From Setaria digitata (taxonomy: Eukaryota > Nematoda > Chromadorea > Rhabditida > Setariidae), in contig RCAB01000071.1 of the NCBI GenBank assembly GCA_003640385.1, positions 124,001-188,000 on the forward strand: a DNA stretch of 64,000 nt, given 5' to 3'. Positions 157-36,791 of this stretch are shown one piece after another. The notes under the pieces are model-generated. The model saw only the letters and a program-made list of their open reading frames with translations. It was not told where the DNA came from and did no database searches. Made by a program: the position numbers and the translations under genes. The number at the start of each line of letters is the position of its first letter. Within the stretch, counting starts at the first letter, position 1.

Positions 157-1941
157 AGAAAATATGGAAGGTGAATATTCTGGACTTGAGCATGAAGCTA
201 AAAAAGGAGTCGTTGAAAGTTTAAAGGTTATTATTTCTTTGTTAACTTGTTTGCAAGTTGCTGTAAGTAATTTTCATTTTATGTAGGAATTGTTTAAAAT
301 TATGTTGTTTGAAACCTTCGCTAGAAAACTGCTGCTAGATTCAGCAGTCCTTTGAAACAAAGGAAATTTTCTTTCATCTCTCTTACGGTTTATTATTATT
401 GTTTATTTCTCTGTTAGGATTTATAGATTGTCACACGTAAAAATATTGAACGTATTGCCCGTTTCGCATTCGAATATGCTGTATCACATAAGAGGAAGAA
501 AGTAACAGCAGTTCACAAGGCTAATATACAAAAACTCGCAGATGGCTTGTTTCTTAGAGTGGGCCTTAACATTTCCTTTGTGTTTTAAGTTATGTAATAT
601 GTATTTGTCTTTGCACTATTTCTATTCTTTAGGATGGATCATATGCATAAATATAGTAGATTCACACAATTGAGAGTTTGAAGCTTTCTAGTCTTCTAAT
701 TATTCAATTCAGTTGACAAAAATAGGTTCTTTTTGTGCTGAGTTAACTCCCTATTGTGAATTTAACCAAAATTGTTATTTTTACTTTTATTTTATTTTAT
801 TTTTTATTTTAGCTGTGATTTTCCAGGTATGTAAAGAAATAGCAAAGAGTGAATATCCACAGCTCCAGTTTGAGTCAATGATTGTAGATAATGCGTCAAT
901 GCAGCTCGTTTCTTGTCCGCAACAGTTTGACATTATACTTTTGCCTAATCTTTACGGCAACATAATTTCAAACATAGCTTGTGGTCTCATTGGTGGAGCT
1001 GGATTAGTGTCAGGTGTGAACATTGGTTCCGAATATGCTGTTTTTGAGACGGTTTGTATTTTAGCAGTCGAAAATTTCTGTTATTCTAATTTAATTCTGT
1101 AAATGGAATCATAAAAATAAGAATAATTTTGACTGTATTATTTGAAATAATGCTTCATAGTGTTCATCCTAGTTTGTTTTTCAATTTGAGGGAACAAGAG
1201 GCAGAGGCACTGAAATAGCTGGCAAAAATATTGCGAATCCAACTTCCTTCATTCGAGCTAGCGTAGATATGCTGAAATATTTGGGATTGGACAGTTATGC
1301 AAATCTGATCAGTGATTCCCTGTTTCTTGCACTTACAGAGCGACATATACATACTGTTGATATTGGAGGTAGGTATACCACTCCAATTTGTGATTCTAAC
1401 TGATTGATTAGATAATAAATTTATAACATTGTATTTCTTTGCGGTCTTCACTTTCCGATTTATGCGGAAATTTCTATCCAAAATTCAGTCCTTAGGCCAG
1501 TACTATCATCTATTATCCAGTAGATATCATTGGACGGGGAATTTTTTCCCATCTATTGTCTGTTACAGTTGGATTTTTGTAATCCAAGCATTTTTAACTG
1601 TTATTACCTGAAAATTTATATAGTGAGAGATTTCAAAATTTATATTTGTAAAGATGGTTTATCAGCAAGAAAAACTGGGTTATCTACTAACAAGAATCGT
1701 CATCACAACCTTGTTTCTCATATCTTGTAATTCGTTTTTTTTTGTTCATTTAGTTTTTGTTGGTTTTTGATTTCTTGAGATATCAGATGTTCTGGTACTT
1801 ATGAAAAATAAATTTTGTGAAGTTAGTGGTTTTACTTTGCCATTTTAAACTTGCTGTTTCATAGGTACGGCTAAGACGAGTGAAGTTGTGGACGTAACTT
1901 TGGAAATAATGAATCAGCTAAGGGATACCTACATTCAATGA
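157..1941 (+). CDS. NAD-dependent isocitrate dehydrogenase, gamma-like subunit (5' partial)
   Basis: Mitochondrial TCA-cycle enzyme that oxidatively decarboxylates isocitrate to 2-oxoglutarate; the gamma subunit is regulatory in the heterooligomer. Exons read 157-226, 427-558, 827-1051, 1191-1368 and 1865-1941, all joining in phase with GT/AG ends. Visible family motifs are [55 protein letters not shown] and [10 protein letters not shown]. The wording YAVFET followed by [18 protein letters not shown] and HTVDIGG fits IDH3G better than IDH3B or IDH3A, as far as I can judge from memory of the family. The stop is TGA at 1939-1941. The reading enters 157 with one base completing an arginine codon, so upstream exons carrying the mitochondrial presequence and N-terminal half are outside the window. 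The first 156 bases hold no recognisable IDH coding and look like intron. Confidence 0.9.
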
Positions 1942-4517
1942 ACATTATTTGAAGAAGGTGGCCGTGATCATTTTATTAGTGAGAATATTCATTAAATTTG
2001 TTGATGAGTTCAGTGTAGAATTTTCGCCTTAATTTGATTCTTGAATGCTTTTTTTTGTAACCGTTTTTTTTAGTTGAGCCATGAACAATGCGTATGATAA
2101 ATGGATTTTTTCTTGAATTGAGTTCTGGATTTTCCTTATCCGGTGAATTTAATGGCTTCTAGTTAACATTTTTGTTTACCTGTAGTAGAACTTTTAGTTA
2201 TTTATATAGTCTAATTTTTGCAGACTTACTGAAATGCTCTTTGAAATCTTGAATGATTTAACTTATCCTACTAAAATTTAAGGGACTCTTTTTTTACTCA
2301 CTTTTATCTTTAAATTTAACCTCATGATTTTAAAAGATCTCTTCAGAATTATTGTGTGCAGTTTTGACGCTTACTTTAGTCAATAGCTACTGTTGGCGAG
2401 CCTCATTTTGTTGCGTAACTGGTATTGCTGCTGCTCATCATTTATTAGCAGTTGTCACCTCGAATATTCGTGCAAGCACATACCTTTCCAAGTAATTACT
2501 TTACACCAGAATTGTTGGTCCTGTGCGGCGGAGAACTTGCTTTCAATATTCAGTTTTTTGAGCCCGCATTAAATAAAAAAATGTTATCTAATTCTCTAAA
2601 TCGAAAATTTTTGCTCGTATATAAATAGCTTTAGCTTCACCAGTGATGACAAATCCTCCTCGTTTTTCGGCCACTTATTCTGAGTTCAGCTAAATGCTTT
2701 GCGGTCAAGCTTTTTCCATCTTTATCACTCTTTCTGCAGTACTTTTCAGGTAAGCTGTACTTGCGATGCTTCCGAAAACCTCTTATGTTTGCTTAACAGG
2801 GTTTTGCTGGTCAATTTGGATTGAACAGTTTTGTTGCTATGTTTTGTTATTAAAAAAAATTGCTTCACATCTTTATTTTAAGAAGAAGACAAAGATCCAT
2901 GGTATTTTCTCAGGGATTTAGCTCATAACTTATCTGCTCAAAAGATTTTGATGACATTGTAGTTTAACTGGGAAACAAAAGTTCGTAATTTCGCAATACA
3001 TTTTGAATGTTTTGACGACTCTTATGTTTGAGAACGTGTGAGATTTCTTTTCATACATGCCATTAATAGTTTTTTATTTTATTCTATAATTTTTCTCTGA
3101 ATTCTCCCGAGTAATGTAGCTTGTATACATGCAGTATAGCTGAAGATGCTCTAAATTTGATTTATTTAACGCGTGCTTTTGTCTGCTTGGAAGAATGATA
3201 GTATCTGTCTGTGCTTCTACTTCATGCTTACTATTTAGTGGGCATGTTTTCACGCCTTTGTATATGTTATTATTTATTTCTAGTATTTTTGCAAATTATT
3301 CATTTTCCTTTCCATCAAATTCAGTTTGTTTTTTAGTTCCTTAAAATTCTACATAGCCGTACAACTTTTAATAATATAATTATTATAACTCGAGACTAGA
3401 AATTTTAATGAAGTTTTTTGGGATTGGTTGGCAGACCTAAATCTCTTTTCAGTGTTTGTTTTGTGTTTATAAAATTATTCTTCTGCAACATCTTTTTCCA
3501 GTGCAGTTTCATTGTTTAAATGTATGATGCATAAATTGGTTCTCCAACTGATCCACTTCACTCGAATTTGTTGGAATTAAAGCTCTTTTTGTTTCGGAAC
3601 ACTATGTCTTAATTATTTCAAAATTTTGGGAACCTGAAAAAATTGGTGGAGATTGGTGAGAATCGAGATTCCGAAGTATCAATAGGCAACGAGATGTTTC
3701 TGGTTACTGAAGTTTTAGGCTGTTAAAAGGTGGGTAGTACATGAGGGTTGCTTTATGCAAAGTGGTTTTAAAAGATACTTCATTTGTGTCTTCGATACAA
3801 ATTGTAGGGGATTGGTTTAATTTTATTTATTTCTTTCTTCCACAGAAGCTTTTGTTGATGTTTGGTAAGTCCTTTTCCACGCTTTATCATCCTATCAGTG
3901 AATGAAATCGGTATTTCCTTTGATTAATTTACAGCGAGATTTTATATCCAGTGAGCTTTAGTTCAGATATTTTAAGTTATGAAGAACTGGAACTGTAGAT
4001 ATTTACATGTACGGAACTGAATGAAGATGTAATTTGCCTGAAATGCTCAAAGAGCTTCTCTGTATAATATAATGTTATGTTTCTCGAATATTTTGGCCAA
4101 GTCTTTAATATGTTAAGCTACAGTTTCTAATGAATCCAGGTCCAGTGACATTTTCAATCTTAGCCTCAAATTCATTGCTGAGTCAGTACTTTAAATCGGA
4201 ATTAAGTAGTTGGTCTAATCTTTAAAAAGAAGTTACCTACTGCTTTAAGGCATACCCTTGACGGAGACCTCTAATGTATGTATGTTTACTTCCACTTCAG
4301 CAAATCACAATAATGCCTCAAAGGAATTTGGATGTGATTACGATAAAAAAAGAACTTTGTGCTGAAGTTTGTTACAATCTGTCAAGCAAGGGAAAGAGTG
4401 TTTGCAAACAAATGTTCTTCTCCTCACCAAATAACTTTTAAAACTTTTGTCTTTCGCTTATCAGCAGTATCAACGTTATTTCCTCTTCTGCTTTTAATTC
4501 AATTATACTGTGTTATT
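1942..4517. other. Intergenic stretch after IDH, possible orphan signal-peptide exon
   Basis: Mostly stop-rich AT DNA. One item stands out: an ATG at 2694 opens a hydrophobic stretch (MLCGQAFSIFITLSAVLF) that runs to a good donor (CAG|gtaagc at 2750) in phase 2. That phase would also splice in frame to the exon at 4762. A 19-nt segment at 3847-3865 is also bracketed by good splice sites (ttccacag and gtaagtc). Neither can be assigned with confidence. Confidence 0.3.
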
Positions 4518-5131
4518 ATGCTAACCAGAATTATTTTAGTAGCTCTTTTGTGTCTTTTGAAATCTCAAAATGAAAGGGAAATTCATTATTGTAGGGATTT
4601 ATTATTATGTATATTACATAGAATAGCCAGAGGATATATTCCAGCAGATGTGCCTTTTTTGTATTACTATTATTGTAAATTTGGGATATTTTTTTTTTTT
4701 TTTTTTTTATGTATGGCTTAATAGAATGCTTAATAGAATATAGAAAAAAATGACTTTGCAGGGCAGGCTCTGCCAAAATATTACAGTGGGACGAAGAATT
4801 ACGAAACAATGCATGGTAATTTTATTTCGAGCATGTTACGTTTCTTATATACCTTCCAGGATTTTTCGTAGTGCGAGATTTTCCTCTATAAAGTATTCGG
4901 AAAGTCAAAACTTCTTTTGGAAATAGAAAGACGCTTTACTTCATCCAAAAAAAAAAAAAAATTTGCAGGACAAATTTGCCATTAACTCAATTATTTCCGT
5001 GGCATCCTACATCACATAAGGAAACTCGTCATTTTGAACAACCGAAGCATCACGTAGTGCTACGTTCCGCAAACCATTTCAAGAACTGCTATTTCTCACC
5101 AATACAATGTGTACTTGTTGAAGAACAATAA
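4518..5131 (+). CDS. Putative allatostatin C-like neuropeptide precursor
   Basis: Three phase-consistent exons, 4518-4660, 4762-4815 and 4969-5131 (TAA), give about 119 residues. The N terminus (MLTRIILVALLCLL) looks like a signal peptide. The C-terminal end carries HFKNCYFSPIQCVLVEEQ. The CYFSPIQC core has the same length, cysteine spacing and most residues of arthropod AstC (CYFNPISC), whose two cysteines form a disulfide ring. AstC is a secreted inhibitory peptide acting on somatostatin/AstC-type GPCRs. Introns of 101 and 153 bp have clean GT/AG ends. There is no Gly-basic amidation site after the ring, and a clear dibasic site is not visible just before it; LRSANHF could be cut at the single Arg. 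The first exon is uncertain: an alternative signal-like exon at 2694-2749 has the same exit phase. No gene symbol is assigned; function is inferred from the motif only. Confidence 0.6.
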
Positions 5132-5375: not shown

Positions 5376-5381
5376 AATAAA
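5376..5381 (+). terminator. Candidate polyadenylation signal AATAAA
   Basis: Canonical hexamer about 245 bases after the stop of the AstC-like gene; position fits a 3' end but AATAAA is common by chance in DNA this AT-rich. Confidence 0.3.
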
Positions 5382-15926: not shown

Positions 15927-18900
15927 ATGATAGCTGATGATGATCAACCACCAGAACCAATTGTAAGCGATTACGTTGAATTAGGAACATTACTTATTTT
16001 GTTCATTATTGGTGGGCCATTAAATCTTGCAGCGTACACTCAGGTAAATCATTATGATTTGGCAGGGTTTTTGCTTTTAGTAAGAATCGTTCATATTATG
16101 ATCCGTTCAATTTATTTACATGTTCTTCTTTCAAAACCGAATAAACTTTGTTGATAATAAAATTACATATAAATATATGATTAAAAAGTTACTTAAACGG
16201 AAGAATAAATAATAAATTGAGAAAATTGTAATATGCATCACTTATTTCAAAACTTCAGTTTTTCATTCTCGAGTTTTGGAGTGAACGATTTCATTCACTT
16301 TTGCATTTATCGAATAATTTGATTTTTTAACTCCCATAACAGAAGCTGTTCTGAAGTCAGGAATGAGAGAATTCTGGATGAGAAGCATTTTTTATGTACT
16401 TCAAGCAAACATTTTCGGCTGCCGTAAAATTTTCAAATTTTTAACAAATTTGTTGTCTGAAGAAGGATTGCCAAAGAATGGACAGCCCCTTTATTCAACC
16501 TGGTGGATTATTTTCTTATTCTTCCTTGAATTCCGAGTTTTTTTTCCTTTCTAATGGTTTATTTCCATTTACTTACACGAAATTACTCATTGGGAGGAGA
16601 AAAAAAAAACTATCGGAGAAGCAGAACCAATCAAGAGAAAGTACTACAAAACGGTATTAGTTTTCACCCAAATTGTTGCCATGGACTTAGAAAAGAGAGG
16701 CAGTAAGTATATTTGCCAGTAAACTTCGTCTGAATTTAAGCTCAAAAGGATCGATATTCAAATGAAAAAAAAAAAAAAAAAAAGAAGAATACTACCAAGG
16801 CCTGATAGGACAAATCAGTAATCCAGTAATTATACACTCTTGAACATATCAGGTAATTTCTTTATGAATGTTCTCAACATCCTCCGCATGAATCGATCAT
16901 TCAATATCAGAAAACTAACTGAATTTCAGATCGCTGAGCGCCCATCTGCAACGCGTCTTGATATCCTAAAAAGACATTTGAATTATTCTGATTTACTTGT
17001 GCTATTCATTTACGTACCATCACGAGTATGCTGGTTGCTTACGTATGACTGGCGAGGCGGGAATTCCTTATGCAAAATTATCAAGTTTCTTCATACATTT
17101 TCTTTTCAGGTAAAAGTTTCGGATCAAATCTTTATTTACTCCTGAAATTCTTTGGTGAAAGTTTTCGTGTACTTCTGAAAATCTACTTATTTTGTGCAAT
17201 CAGATTACAAATAAGGCATACTATTTTGTTTAATTCATAAATAATAATTATGTTAGGCATAAAAAATAATCAAAAAAATACTCTTCTAAAATCTCTGTCC
17301 GAGAACTTGTTTTATAATCTACGTTGATGGCATCAACAAAATACACTAGAAGAATCATGACAGTCCTTCTTCAAATATAAAAGTAATTAATTACCACTGG
17401 TCACTATTGCGAATTATTTGCTTCAATTTGTTTTTTGCAGCAGATGCCGTCTAGAATTTGAAGATTGGTTACTGGTATTTCGTAACCTTTTATTCTGACA
17501 ACGTGAAAAGCGACCGATAAAAAAAAACATGATTTTGGCTGTTTACTAAGAATTTAAGTTTCGGGAAGTAGGACTTTCACTAAGTAGAAATCTATTTTTT
17601 AAAGTTTATAGCTAGGATTTCGCTATCCAAATTGTGAATAATTTTAATAAATCATATTTAAAGTAGAGTGTGAAGCGAATGTCGCACTAGTGGATGTTAA
17701 AACCATAGCAAAGTGGTCAAAAATTTTAATTTTATTACAGGTATCATCGAACGTAATTGTTTGTATAGCAATTGATCGCTTATTATCAGTAGTGTCATCA
17801 AAGCACCATTCACCAGAAAAAGCTCAACGAAGAACTCGAGCAATGCTGTTAATAGCATGGATTGCTGCTGCTCTTATTAGCACACCACAGTTCATTGTAT
17901 GGAAAACATTTCTTGCATTTGAAGAACTTAACTGGAGTCAGTGTATGCAGGTACTGTATAAATGTGAGGCTTGAAGTCTTTAAAATCCGTGATTCTATTC
18001 TCTTGCTTAAACGTGTCTCTGTTTCTACTTTAGTTTAATTCCCATGATTTTATTTAAAATTGCAAATGAATTTAAATAGATTTGGGAAATAATTCGAGTC
18101 GAGCAAGCCATGCAGAACAGTACTATTGGGATTTCACGTCAGCTGATGGAACAAGAAAATATTTACGTCGTTGTTCACATGATGTTGATTTTTTGGTTTC
18201 CAGCAACTATTGTTCTGGTTCAGTTCTTTCGCTTTTTCCCTCTATCAAATCCTTTGCATAAAAAGATGCTGAAAATCACTAAAAATTTTAGTAAGTGAAG
18301 GCAAAAAATTTTGCAGCGTAAAATGAATTACAGTTGTGCTATCTAATTGTATCCTGTTGGGTTTACCTGAATTCACGACCCGTAACAAATACAGGAATGC
18401 AGTTGCGTAATTCTACCAGGCCAGCTATCTCTGGTAACGAAAGTAGTAGGCAATGGATAAAAAGCAAACATTTTAATGGTATGTGAAAGTTTTACCCTAA
18501 ATTTCCGATCGTTTTAAGAGTACACAAATGAAACTAAAATGCTAACATAAAAAATGCTTTAAAAACAGTGAAAGACTTCCAAATTTGCAGTATGAGGAGC
18601 TGACATATAATATTGAGCTTTATAAATCACAAATTCATTTATACAGCTTTGTTCAATACTTCAAATATCCAGAAATGCAAATATAAATTTGCATTAAAAT
18701 ATCAAAATTTATAAGAAATAAAAAAACAAATGCTTGGTGTGGTGAAAGAAGGTGCTTCCTTCACCACTTGGGTAAATAATTTATACACGCTTTCTATTAT
18801 TCATGGTTTATATCAAGGAGTAAAGTATATTTAGAAAAGTGTCTTTCTCCGTATGATAGAAAAGTGAAGAATCAAGGGACTTGAATCACTGCCGAAATGA

Positions 18901-20034
18901 GACAGGAACTGAGCTACTGCTTTCTAAGAATTGTATAAAGTTGAAGTATATCTCTGATTCTATTTTCCATATTCTGGAAGCCAACTTCTTGGTAGAACTA
19001 AAATGTATAGCAATATTTACTCATTAATTTCTGATCAACTCTGGTTCATAAAATAATTTCTTAGAAAGAAATAAGCAAAATTATAAAATTTGTTGCGATC
19101 AAATTTTGGGCTCAATTTTGGTATACAGATTGAATTTGATAGAGTAGTAAAATAACGGTAAAATATAGAAAAACTTGAGACCCAGACTGGAAATCCATTA
19201 AACTGGCAGTGAACAAAGGAAAGTATAGAAATGCACAGTCTTGTTAATGCATACGTTTTTCTCAACCACTGTTTTATCATTTCCGAAGCATTAAAGTTGT
19301 TTCCTGAAATTGAAAGTTTCAAATTAAAAAGTTTCTTATGAAAGGATATTTGAAATGAGTTTCATCCTCTCATTAATGAATCCGATCTTCCTATCATTTT
19401 TAGTTGCGTTTATCAGTCGAGTTGAACAGAGCTGTGTTAATGATGCTGCTTAATCCATTCTTGTGTGATTTTAGTGAATCCATGTATTATTATTAGTGAA
19501 GATGATCAGGCAACCAGCAGTCGTTCATTAACGAAACAAAGTAGCACTGTTGCACTAGATTATAGTTCCACCTGTTGTGTCGTCAGCTATCAATCATGCA
19601 ACAGTAAAATTATTCGGTAGGTTCACCGCTAGAAGTATATTATTATCCAATTCGTGACTTCTGCACTATAACTGTTACTTTTTCATCTCTTAGTCTATTA
19701 CTGGATGAAAATTTCAGGAGTCGAGCGATTCGAGTGAGTTTCCAACTTGTAGCTGCTTATATCATATGTTGGTTGCCATACAATGGGCTTAGCTTGTATC
19801 ATTTTATTGACCCTCAAGGATTCTTCGAGGCACATGCTAACAAAGTGTGTCGTGATTCTGGAAAACCTGAAATGAGAATGATCAAACAGATATGAAATAC
19901 ATGTGAAATAAAAATCAAATGAAAATATATTTCAGGTCTATTGCTTGCACAGCATTATGGTTTTCAATTCAGTGATCAATCCCTATCTTTATGGGTTATT
20001 TGGAAATCTCTTATCGCACAGGCGGAGTGATTGA
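15927..20034 (+). CDS. GnRH-receptor-related (gnrr-type) rhodopsin-family GPCR
   Basis: Seven-transmembrane peptide receptor. Exons: 15927-16043, 16930-17109, 17741-17950, 18080-18290, 18395-18478, 19475-19616, 19694-19844, 19936-20034; the sum is 1194 nt, giving 397 residues, and all phases agree. TM1 is near 17-39, TM2 56-79, TM3 88-113, TM4 131-150, TM5 204-226, TM6 322-345, TM7 366-388. Cysteines at 87 and 167 fit the conserved extracellular disulfide. The TM3 end reads IAIDRLLSV, so DRY is DRL. TM6 has the FxxCWLPY-like ICWLPYNG; TM7 ends NPYLYGLFG, as in nematode GnRH-receptor-like proteins. The third intracellular loop is long (about 95 residues) and Ser-rich, while the C-terminal tail after TM7 is very short, as in mammalian GnRH receptors. 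The ATG directly abuts a splice acceptor (tttattttcag), suggesting spliced-leader addition or an unseen 5' exon. Ligand unknown; assignment to a specific gnrr paralogue is not possible here. Confidence 0.85.
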
Positions 20035-34300: not shown

Positions 34301-36791
34301 CAATTTAATTAAAGCGAAGTTACATTATTAAAGAAAATCGATTTTCGACTGAAATGTTTTTCTCCGGTTTAGGTTTCCCATCATCCACCAGTTTCGGCTC
34401 TTTTCCTAACAAATCGGAAAGCAGGCTTCAATATAGCGGGTACAATATTGGCAAAAAGTAAATATTATGGAAACAGTTTATCGGCCATGATGATCGGTGA
34501 TGTGCGAATAACACTCTTGCAGCGAGGTGAAACATATATTGCTACCTTACCTTACGCTAATTGTAAAGGTATCATGATTGGGACACTTTCAATGGAATAC
34601 GGCGGCCAGGTGAATTTCGTCACTTTTTTAATGCATCATTTTGATGTATTAATTTGGCTCCAGAATAAAAATGGCGTTGCCGTATTTTGTGTATTATATG
34701 CTCTTGAAGTGTTATAAGTTGAGATTTTGGAGCGAAATCTTTTCATGGTAGGATTAAAAAATTATTTAAAAAAAAATTGACATTTCTAGATTGCAGGTAT
34801 TTGTATTAAGCTTATGCAGGGAAATGACCCAATTAAGCGAGAACTCTTTTTAGGTAAGAATAGAATGTAATCGTACGGATTATGTGTGCGAGCTTAACTT
34901 CAAATTAAAACCATTTATTGGAGGAACAGTGAATCTCATTACTGGAGATATCAAATGTAAAAAAGAATCAGTGGCGCATATTGAAGGTGCTTGGGATGGC
35001 GAAATTTATATAACTGAGAAGGTAATCATTGTCTTGCGAAGCATTTTCACTAGTTAATAAGTTAGTGTGTTATTTCCAGTTATCCCGGATCTCGTATGTA
35101 TTTGCATAAAAATGTGTTTTTCAGTTTAGTGCAAATGATTACCGATACAGATATTCTGTATCGGTAATCATTTGCACTAAACTGAAATATTTACAGATAT
35201 TCTGCCTTAATATACCACTTTCAGGAACATTTAAGATTGATTGAATGAGCTACTAACATAATATTTTGAAATATTTCTGTGAAGACCGTGATTTTTAGTA
35301 CTTTTTCTTGCAGGATATAAGGACACTTTTATGGTCACCGACACCAGATGTAATTGCTAAACGACTTAAGCGTTACGAAATTTTATTGGAAGAGCAGGGT
35401 GAATGGGAATCAAAAAAGTATTTATTTTTTTAGTTTTTAACTGGTAACTGGTGAGACTGATGAGGGTGAAATTGCAAGTTCCCAATTAAGGTTGTGGTTG
35501 AAAGTAAGTGAAGCGATAGTTAAAGATAATCAGAAAGCTGCAACGGAGGAAAAAAGTAAACTAGAAGATGAACAACGCAGTCGGGCTAAATCTGGAGTTC
35601 ACCACAAGCCTAAATGGTTCAAGCAAGACCTGCTGTCGAAAAGTTATGAATATATACATGCCGAGTTAGTAATTTTCTTATTTTATTTTTTTTTTTTTGA
35701 GTTTTTTATACATATTAAGATTGTTTTTCTCTTTTACAATACTATCTTGCTACACTCTTTTGATAATCTTTAAAGACGCTTTCAACGTCAGCCCGATTTT
35801 CTTTTTTTTTTTTTCATCTGCCAACTGAATGTTTCTTTTTTTATTGATGTTGAAGTGTTCTACAGTCGATGAATTTATCCATCGAGAGACAGTAATCATA
35901 GTTGATACGTTTGACAACCATACCATTATAGTTACCAAGCATGGGATGAAAGCGATGATATTCGGCAAATTGAATATGATTATGTAATACGAACAAAGAC
36001 TAAACATGGAACCAAAGAGGGATCTGCTTCACTGCCGAGCTCAGCTTCAGTGCAGCAAGAGCAATCTGATGATTCCGACTCACATGCAAGTATGTTGTTT
36101 TTCTAGGCGTAGGTGGGTTCTTAATCTTTGGAAACATTTCTCTTTAATAAAGGTTTTGTTCTGAAATTGAAAGATTAAATTTAGCAGCAAATTTGATCGG
36201 CGATACTTTTTCATACTTGCATTTCCTTTCTTTTTTTTTTTTTTTTTTTTTTTTTTAATGAAAACTCATTTTGGATTTCTCTAGTCAGCCTCATCCTATT
36301 CTCTTTTCTATTTATTTGTTATTTTTACTACAGAATGGTTTCGATATCTAAAATTTAAGATAAGCGATATCGTCAGAAAGGGCATTTTAATTCACGAGAT
36401 TCAGATCGCTTACAGCAAATGCAGGTTAAGTTCTTTCCTTATATCTGAATGTTATGTTCTCTTGGTTGTGTCTTTATTTGTTCGCTTTTAATATTTCCAA
36501 AGGTTTGAATTCATATTTATGATTCAAACTCTTTCGAATGGGAGGGGGGGGAACTTCTTATTTACACACCAATTAGGTGTCTTTTTTTTTCAAAAAAAAG
36601 ACTTTCATGTATATCTTTTAAAGGACACCTTGGATCGTACTCTACAATTTCTTCAGCGTTGGGAAGCGAGAAATGAGAATAGAACCGGTTTAGCCATAAC
36701 ACAACAACAGCTAATTGTAATTATGGCCTTCTTCACATTTCTTCATACCATCATCTTGCCTTTTCTCATCGAGTTACTACGTAAGCTATAA
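31363..36791 (+). CDS. Oxysterol-binding-protein-related protein, ORP5/ORP8 type
   Basis: Lipid exchanger of ER-plasma membrane contacts (family role: PS/PI4P counter-transport). Exons: 31363-31473, 31940-32131, 32374-32580, 32771-32845, 32995-33106, 33292-33404, 33555-33739, 33919-34096, 34373-34609, 34854-35021, 35314-35417, 35491-35664, 35932-36089, 36360-36424, 36624-36791; 2247 nt, 748 residues, all phases closing. PH domain about 60-205 ([18 protein letters not shown]). ORD about 290-640 with [11 protein letters not shown] and the signature [11 protein letters not shown] at about 390-400. A coiled-coil-like [20 protein letters not shown] precedes a C-terminal TM anchor ([19 protein letters not shown]) and RKL. 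In-frame TGA upstream of the ATG at 31363 fixes the start. The intron 33740-33918 fits only with a GC donor (GA|GCAAGT). Intron 10 contains a perfect hairpin. The 36360 acceptor was chosen over 36334 because only it keeps the downstream frame. Confidence 0.9.
35119..35187. repeat. Perfect hairpin, 33-bp arms, 3-base loop, in ORP intron 10
   Basis: The left arm 35119-35151 starts TTTCAGTTTAGTGCAAATG; the right arm 35155-35187 is its exact reverse complement; the loop is TAT. It lies in the intron between exons 34854-35021 and 35314-35417. Confidence 0.95.

What the first reader, a model, noticed from the sequence alone, without database searches (positions are those of the whole stretch)
4518..5131. 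Allatostatin C-like peptide gene hidden in three short exons
The C-terminal exon encodes HFKNCYFSPIQCVL; its ring CYFSPIQC matches the arthropod AstC core CYFNPISC in length, cysteine spacing and six of eight residues. Two upstream exons with clean splice sites join in phase and give a signal peptide. I know of no well-characterised nematode AstC-like ligand of this form, so it could be an overlooked one.
Basis: partly seen in the sequence, partly recalled or inferred. Interest (0 to 1): 0.78.

Follow-up and report, generated by a model that had tools for sequence, protein, structure and literature searches.

The report
Roundworm allatostatin-C-like peptide hormone gene
The sequence holds a real, intact gene for a small ring-shaped peptide hormone that roundworms share with C. 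elegans; the kind is already known, but its first exon lies elsewhere than first thought and the filarial version has lost the usual cutting sites around the peptide.

Summary
The peptide is real. Exons 2 (4762-4815) and 3 (4969-5131) encode a precursor end nearly identical in six named filarial species, one unnamed record and Thelazia; the FKNCYFSPIQCV core recurs across nematodes, including a C. elegans protein that UniRef names Neuropeptide-Like Protein. A profile of 38 sequences from outside the spirurid lineage finds exon 3 at 7e-16; the next of 2,156 window ORFs has E 0.26. The precursor has 90 residues. Nematode AstC-like ligands are not overlooked: PMC8764417 lists 16 genes, and NLP-99/NPR-16 is characterised in C. 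elegans (PMC13082328). This gene is not nlp-99, whose orthologue lies elsewhere in the genome; nlp-71 is most likely (inferred). One fresh point: 0 of 9 sequences (window, filarial, unnamed, Thelazia) have a dibasic site within 12 residues after the ring, against 43 of 48 others, so the filarial peptide probably ends at the stop codon. Receptor, expression and processing are untested.

The parts
2694..2749 (+). True exon 1: start codon and signal peptide MLCGQAFSIFITLSAVLF plus first two bases of an Arg codon
   Evidence: ungapped BLOSUM62 72 against O. volvulus P0001, next best 24; donor AG|GTAAGC, phase 2; in-frame TAA just before the ATG, and TTCAG (possible trans-splice acceptor) 4 bases upstream
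2750..4761 (+).
   Evidence: GTAAGC...TTTGCAG borders; homologues cover about exons 2-3 only
4762..4815 (+). Exon 2: propeptide AGSAKILQWDEELRNNAW (last codon split)
   Evidence: Matches NSARISLWDEE(S/L)RN(G/N)AW in the O. volvulus and Loa loa models; donor GTAATT
4816..4968 (+). Intron 2 (153 bp)
   Evidence: GTAATT...TTTGCAG borders
4969..5131 (+). Exon 3: rest of propeptide, mature peptide, stop codon
   Evidence: Four homologues; 38-sequence profile hit 7e-16
5066..5128 (+). Predicted mature peptide SANHFKNCYFSPIQCVLVEEQ, residues 70-90 of the precursor, after the conserved single Arg 69
   Evidence: Table; Arg-Ser at this place in 9 of 9 (window, P0001-P0008); cleavage itself is inferred
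5087..5110 (+). Ring CYFSPIQC, presumed disulfide between the two Cys
   Evidence: Pattern match C679:129084-129110 (N plus ring); disulfide inferred from the synthetic NLP-99 peptide
5376..5381 (+). AATAAA, possible poly(A) signal 245 bp after the stop
   Evidence: consensus only

Best explanation
A filarial-type nematode orthologue of the widely conserved nematode AstC-like neuropeptide gene that includes the C. elegans protein P0016 (probably nlp-71, inferred, about 60%). Shown by sequence: three exons (2694-2749, 4762-4815, 4969-5131) encode a 90-residue precursor with a hydrophobic start, a short propeptide and a conserved C-terminal ring peptide. Inferred: the signal peptide is removed, a convertase cuts after the single Arg 69, the two Cys form a disulfide, and the 21-residue peptide is released from neurons to act on a somatostatin/AstC-type G-protein-coupled receptor, as NLP-99 does on NPR-16 in C. 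elegans. In the filarial and Thelazia sequences seen, the dibasic site after the peptide is gone and the one before it is mostly gone, so the C-terminus (VEEQ) is probably set by the stop codon and not by cleavage and trimming. The confidence given is for the gene's identity as an AstC-like neuropeptide orthologue.
For: Filarial homologues with near-identical tails. Homologues across nematodes with the ring CYFSP[IV]QC in 56 of 56 returned proteins, though the search favours shared words and lists up to E 10. Profile built without the spirurid rows and without NLP-99: 54.8 bits, 7e-16, next window ORF 0.26. Exon 1 with matching signal peptide and consensus donor. One genomic match to the exon 3 protein. 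Separate nlp-99 and nlp-88-like exons in the same genome, so the worm appears to have at least three AstC-type ligands. Dibasic counts: within 12 residues after the ring 0 of 9 against 43 of 48; within 25 before it 2 of 9 against 47 of 48.
Against: No transcript, peptide or receptor data for this worm. Exon 1 rests on one homologue (P0001); the other filarial and Thelazia database models (P0002-P0008) start differently or are truncated. No Pfam family matches the precursor at E up to 1. A human SSTR2 query gave weak, generic-looking GPCR matches in this genome (best 7.4e-6, an exon that looks amine-receptor-like to me), so the receptor is not identified. No source read gives the NLP number together with this peptide sequence.
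Confidence: 0.9

Rival explanations
1. One reading: exon 1 at 4518-4660 gives the signal peptide, possibly as an alternative first exon.
For: ORF open with a hydrophobic start and a phase-2 GT.
Against: Homologues cover about exons 2-3 only; weak donor GTATTA; a better exon with a homologous signal peptide lies at 2694-2749.
Confidence: 0.04
2. It is the orthologue of nlp-99, the ligand of NPR-16.
For: Both have an 8-residue C..FSP..C ring near the C-terminus, ring identity 5 of 8; NLP-99 sequence.
Against: An nlp-99-like exon with the exact ring CEFSPLSC and a C-terminal RR is at C181:52622 in the same genome; the NLP-99 peptide scores 10.8 bits against the core profile that gives the window 54.8.
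Confidence: 0.03
3. The conserved end is not released as a hormone but is the C-terminus of a small secreted protein, since the dibasic sites are gone in filaria.
For: 0 of 9 sequences (window, P0001-P0008) have a dibasic within 12 residues after the ring; the protein ends at VEEQ/VEDQ in 8 of 9, the Thelazia model runs on.
Against: Arg-Ser before the peptide is kept in 9 of 9; the peptide region is far more conserved than the propeptide; 43 of 48 other sequences have a dibasic after the ring.
Confidence: 0.15

Closest known systems
C. elegans Neuropeptide-Like Protein P0016 and its orthologues (an H. contortus record is named 'Protein Y73B6BL.35'); probably nlp-71
   Same: FKNCYFSPIQCV core, H-x-I/V-x-x-R-[SA] just before it, C-terminal place of the peptide
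   Different: Window peptide ends VLVEEQ-stop, P0016 ends VLMERRRK; no KR before the peptide; propeptide differs
C. elegans NLP-99 / NPR-16 (PMC13082328)
   Same: 8-residue Cys ring with FSP, C-terminal place, AstC/somatostatin type
   Different: Ring CEFSPLSC; a separate gene, with an orthologous exon elsewhere in this genome (C181)
nlp-88 AstC-like gene (PMC8764417)
   Same: Ring of the same length with NC.FSP.QC
   Different: RNCFF(S/T)P(V/A)QC motif; an nlp-88-like exon is elsewhere in this genome (C225:8572)
Arthropod allatostatin C (CYFNPISC core, as given in the finding, not fetched)
   Same: 6 of 8 ring residues and spacing
   Different: Window extends VLVEEQ beyond the ring; orthology to arthropod AstC not tested

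Membership tests
Nematode FKNCYFSPIQC AstC-like gene (C. elegans P0016; probably nlp-71) | Core [FY]KNCYFSP[IV]QC near the C-terminus | tested here: met
   profile 7e-16
Nematode FKNCYFSPIQC AstC-like gene (C. elegans P0016; probably nlp-71) | Single Arg 8 residues before the ring, followed by A/S/G | tested here: met
   R-S in 9 of 9 (window, P0001-P0008); R-[ASG] in 37 of 48 others
Nematode FKNCYFSPIQC AstC-like gene (C. elegans P0016; probably nlp-71) | Dibasic cluster after the ring (common, not universal: 43 of 48 others) | tested here: not met
   0 of 9; also absent in the Dracunculus, Gnathostoma and Plectus rows, so taken as a lineage loss and not as defining
Nematode FKNCYFSPIQC AstC-like gene (C. 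elegans P0016; probably nlp-71) | Identity with a numbered nlp gene | tested here: inconclusive
   P0016 lies on a 17,493,829-bp contig, recalled as C. elegans chromosome IV; of the seven earlier AstC-like genes only nlp-71 and nlp-79 are listed on IV; nlp-88 to -91 have another motif; nlp-71 is reported as unannotated in B. malayi
Allatostatin C / somatostatin type peptide | Signal peptide on a short precursor | tested here: inconclusive
   Hydrophobic start homologous to O. volvulus P0001, named 'Secreted protein'; no signal-peptide predictor was available
Allatostatin C / somatostatin type peptide | One Cys ring with six residues between Cys, aromatic-F-x-P | tested here: met
   Sequence
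Allatostatin C / somatostatin type peptide | Match to a Pfam family of the precursor | tested here: not met
   no family at E up to 1; not taken as defining, since a short ring peptide gives a profile little to match
Allatostatin C / somatostatin type peptide | Acts on an SST/AstC-type receptor | not testable with these tools
   Receptor search by human SSTR2 inconclusive
nlp-99 | Ring CEFSPLSC followed by LL | tested here: not met
   Window CYFSPIQC-VL; the nlp-99-like exon is at C181
nlp-88 | RNCFF(S/T)P(V/A)QC motif (PMC8764417) | tested here: not met
   Window KNCYFSPIQC; the motif is met at C225:8572 instead

The most novel reading that the evidence does not exclude
In the lineage leading to filarial worms and Thelazia this AstC-like hormone moved from convertase-defined ends to an end set by the stop codon: the flanking dibasic sites were lost (after the ring in all, before it in most of the sequences seen), a new acidic tail VE(E/D)Q was fixed, and only a single-Arg site remains, giving a longer peptide that may be matured by a different enzyme or read by a changed receptor.
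Probability: 0.5. Interest if true: 0.45.

Novelty: new member of a known kind. Interest (0 to 1): 0.3.

Why it matters
It gives a corrected gene model for a conserved neuropeptide that most of the filarial database entries seen here truncate or misread, and indicates that this worm carries at least three AstC-type ligands. Neuropeptide receptors of parasitic nematodes are pursued as drug targets (abstracts of PMC8515059 and PMC8764417), so correct ligand sequences matter for finding their receptors. The loss of processing sites in filaria is a small, testable evolutionary question.

Tried and rejected
Rejected: exon 1 at 4518-4660 (no homology support, weak donor); identity with nlp-99 or nlp-88 (both found elsewhere in the genome); chance occurrence of the ring. 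A looser ring pattern (C-[YF]-F-x-P-x-x-C) gave 46 genome places against 24 for the reversed control, so it is uninformative. I read 6 of the 46 places in frame (L016, L022, L024, L028, L032, L035); only the nlp-88-like one (L016) had clear precursor features. L028 (CYFNPFNC) is open but without evident processing sites and was not followed.

Receptor search with human SSTR2: 19 places at E up to 10. I saw translations or local alignments for 16 of the 19, not for C463, C575 and C50; none looked clearly of somatostatin type. It was left open; neither absence nor presence is claimed. Literature seen in passages only: npr-16 and npr-32 are conserved in 8 of 10 parasites (PMC8515059); a table row in PMC3524798 appears to list a B. 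malayi npr-24 homologue (column order inferred).

Literature limits: peptide-string searches (CYFSPIQC; CYFSP, FKNCYF, NCFFSPVQC or Y73B6BL) and the gene name Y73B6BL.35 gave 0, 22 and 0 papers. The 22 were seen as a listing only: 19 hold Y73B6BL (not opened), 3 hold CYFSP and by title are unrelated, none holds the other two strings. Passages of PMC7615469, PMC12803089 and the nlp-number look-up in PMC9881375 gave nothing on this gene. Supplementary tables were not available, so I cannot say whether this gene is in the tables of PMC8764417. Three look-ups found no held paper, covering two reference papers.

Full report
What is there. The window lies in a 75.6-Mb assembly (G000, contig C679). 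The closest homologues of this gene are filarial nematode proteins; the species was not identified. Exon 3 ends in SANHFKNCYFSPIQCVLVEEQ and a stop codon.

Homology. Their last 21 residues are nearly identical to the window's. A second search, with a six-row alignment that included the C. elegans NLP-99 peptide, returned 56 proteins at E up to 10 among 1,886 candidates, 35 of them at E 1e-3 or better. They include Wuchereria, Elaeophora, an unnamed record (P0006), Thelazia, Toxocara, Dracunculus, Gnathostoma, Steinernema, Strongyloides, Haemonchus, Caenorhabditis and, more weakly, Plectus (E 0.2). All 56 carry CYFSP[IV]QC, which the word-based search favours. To avoid circularity I built a profile from 38 of the 56, dropping 12 rows (filarial, Thelazia, Toxocara, Dracunculus, Gnathostoma, Syphacia) and 6 divergent ones (five unnamed, one Auanema paralogue), without NLP-99. 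It finds the window's exon 3 at 54.8 bits, E 7e-16; the next of 2,156 window ORFs of 20 residues or more has E 0.26.

The first exon. Of the eight filarial/Thelazia models only the O. volvulus one, P0001, has a plausible signal peptide at its start. Scanning the plus strand of 10 kb upstream and the first 5.2 kb of the window, the best ungapped match is at 2694 (MLCGQAFSIFITLSAVLFR, score 72 against 24 for the next), ending in AG|GTAAGC in the phase exon 2 needs. A stop codon in frame sits just before its ATG. The precursor is MLCGQAFSIFITLSAVLFRAGSAKILQWDEELRNNAWTNLPLTQLFPWHPTSHKETRHFEQPKHHVVLRSANHFKNCYFSPIQCVLVEEQ, 90 residues. The other seven filarial/Thelazia entries start differently, seem to read into introns or are truncated.

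Paralogues in the same genome. The pattern N-C-[YF]-F-x-P-x-Q-C (x after F limited to Ser/Thr-like codons) matches twice in the genome and never in the reversed control: here and at C225:8572, where KKRRSNNLRNCFFSPVQCLL fits the published nlp-88 motif (PMC8764417). A pattern for the NLP-99 ring gives one place, C181:52622, reading GYHWEECEFSPLSCLLRR-stop, against C. elegans GDGYGWNDCEFSPLSCLL (PMC13082328). The window gene is therefore neither nlp-99 nor nlp-88. The C. elegans member P0016 is on a contig of 17,493,829 bases, which I recall as chromosome IV. Of the seven earlier AstC-like genes, only nlp-71 and nlp-79 are listed on IV (PMC10077061, passages); nlp-88 to -91 have the RNCFF motif; nlp-71 is one of two genes reported as unannotated in B. 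malayi (PMC8764417 appendix). I infer nlp-71, with perhaps 60% confidence.

Processing. Outside filaria the peptide is usually flanked by basic clusters (for example KR-AHNIDTR-ALNQFKNCYFSPIQCVLME-RRRK in C. elegans P0016). Counting all 57 sequences (56 plus the window), with P0006 counted among the filarial by its sequence alone: a dibasic within 12 residues after the ring is present in 0 of 9 (window, P0001-P0008) and 43 of 48 others; within 25 residues before the ring in 2 of 9 and 47 of 48. The single Arg followed by Ser is kept in 9 of 9. The Dracunculus, Gnathostoma and Plectus rows also lack the C-terminal dibasic, so the loss may be older or repeated. The simplest reading is that the filarial peptide is cut after Arg 69 and ends at the stop codon. 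This is inference; no peptide data exist here.

What is known. PMC8764417 (results section and appendix read, other passages; table contents not held) describes 16 nematode AstC-like genes, with parasitic members. PMC13082328 (abstract, one methods section and passages) shows NLP-99 acting on the Gi/o-coupled receptor NPR-16 to control sleep, metabolism and memory in C. elegans. PMC9881375 (passages) names nlp-99 from Steinernema mass spectrometry. So a nematode AstC-like ligand is not new; this gene is a further member with a corrected structure.

What could not be settled. Receptor: human SSTR2 gave only weak matches, best 7.4e-6, 16 of 19 places looked at. Expression, disulfide formation and cleavage: no data. 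No signal-peptide predictor was run, and no Pfam model matches the precursor at E up to 1.

Noticed in passing
692-1102 (+), with a likely further exon near 1269-1372: Exon of an isocitrate/isopropylmalate dehydrogenase family gene (Pfam PF00180, 6.5e-21) upstream of the peptide gene on the same strand; the further exon is judged by eye.
   Followed up: partly
17651-17974 and 19608-19895 (+): Exons of a rhodopsin-type GPCR (PF00001, 9.9e-9 for the first, 0.00092 and below cut-off for the second); PDB matches of the first are weak, to GPR101 and the GnRH receptor.
   Followed up: partly
34373-34717 (+): Oxysterol-binding protein exon (PF01237, 6e-17).
   Followed up: no
L038 / L045 (G000 C181:52622-52645, minus strand): Exon of an nlp-99 orthologue with the exact C. 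elegans ring CEFSPLSC and C-terminal RR.
   Followed up: partly
L016 / L046 (G000 C225:8572-8598, plus strand): nlp-88-like AstC exon, KKRRSNNLRNCFFSPVQCLL.
   Followed up: partly
P0002-P0010 (database proteins): Most database models of this gene in filaria and Thelazia are truncated or misread, and several UniRef names (PAZ domain, ovule protein, Peptidase_M13, FBA_1) look unrelated to the sequence.
   Followed up: partly
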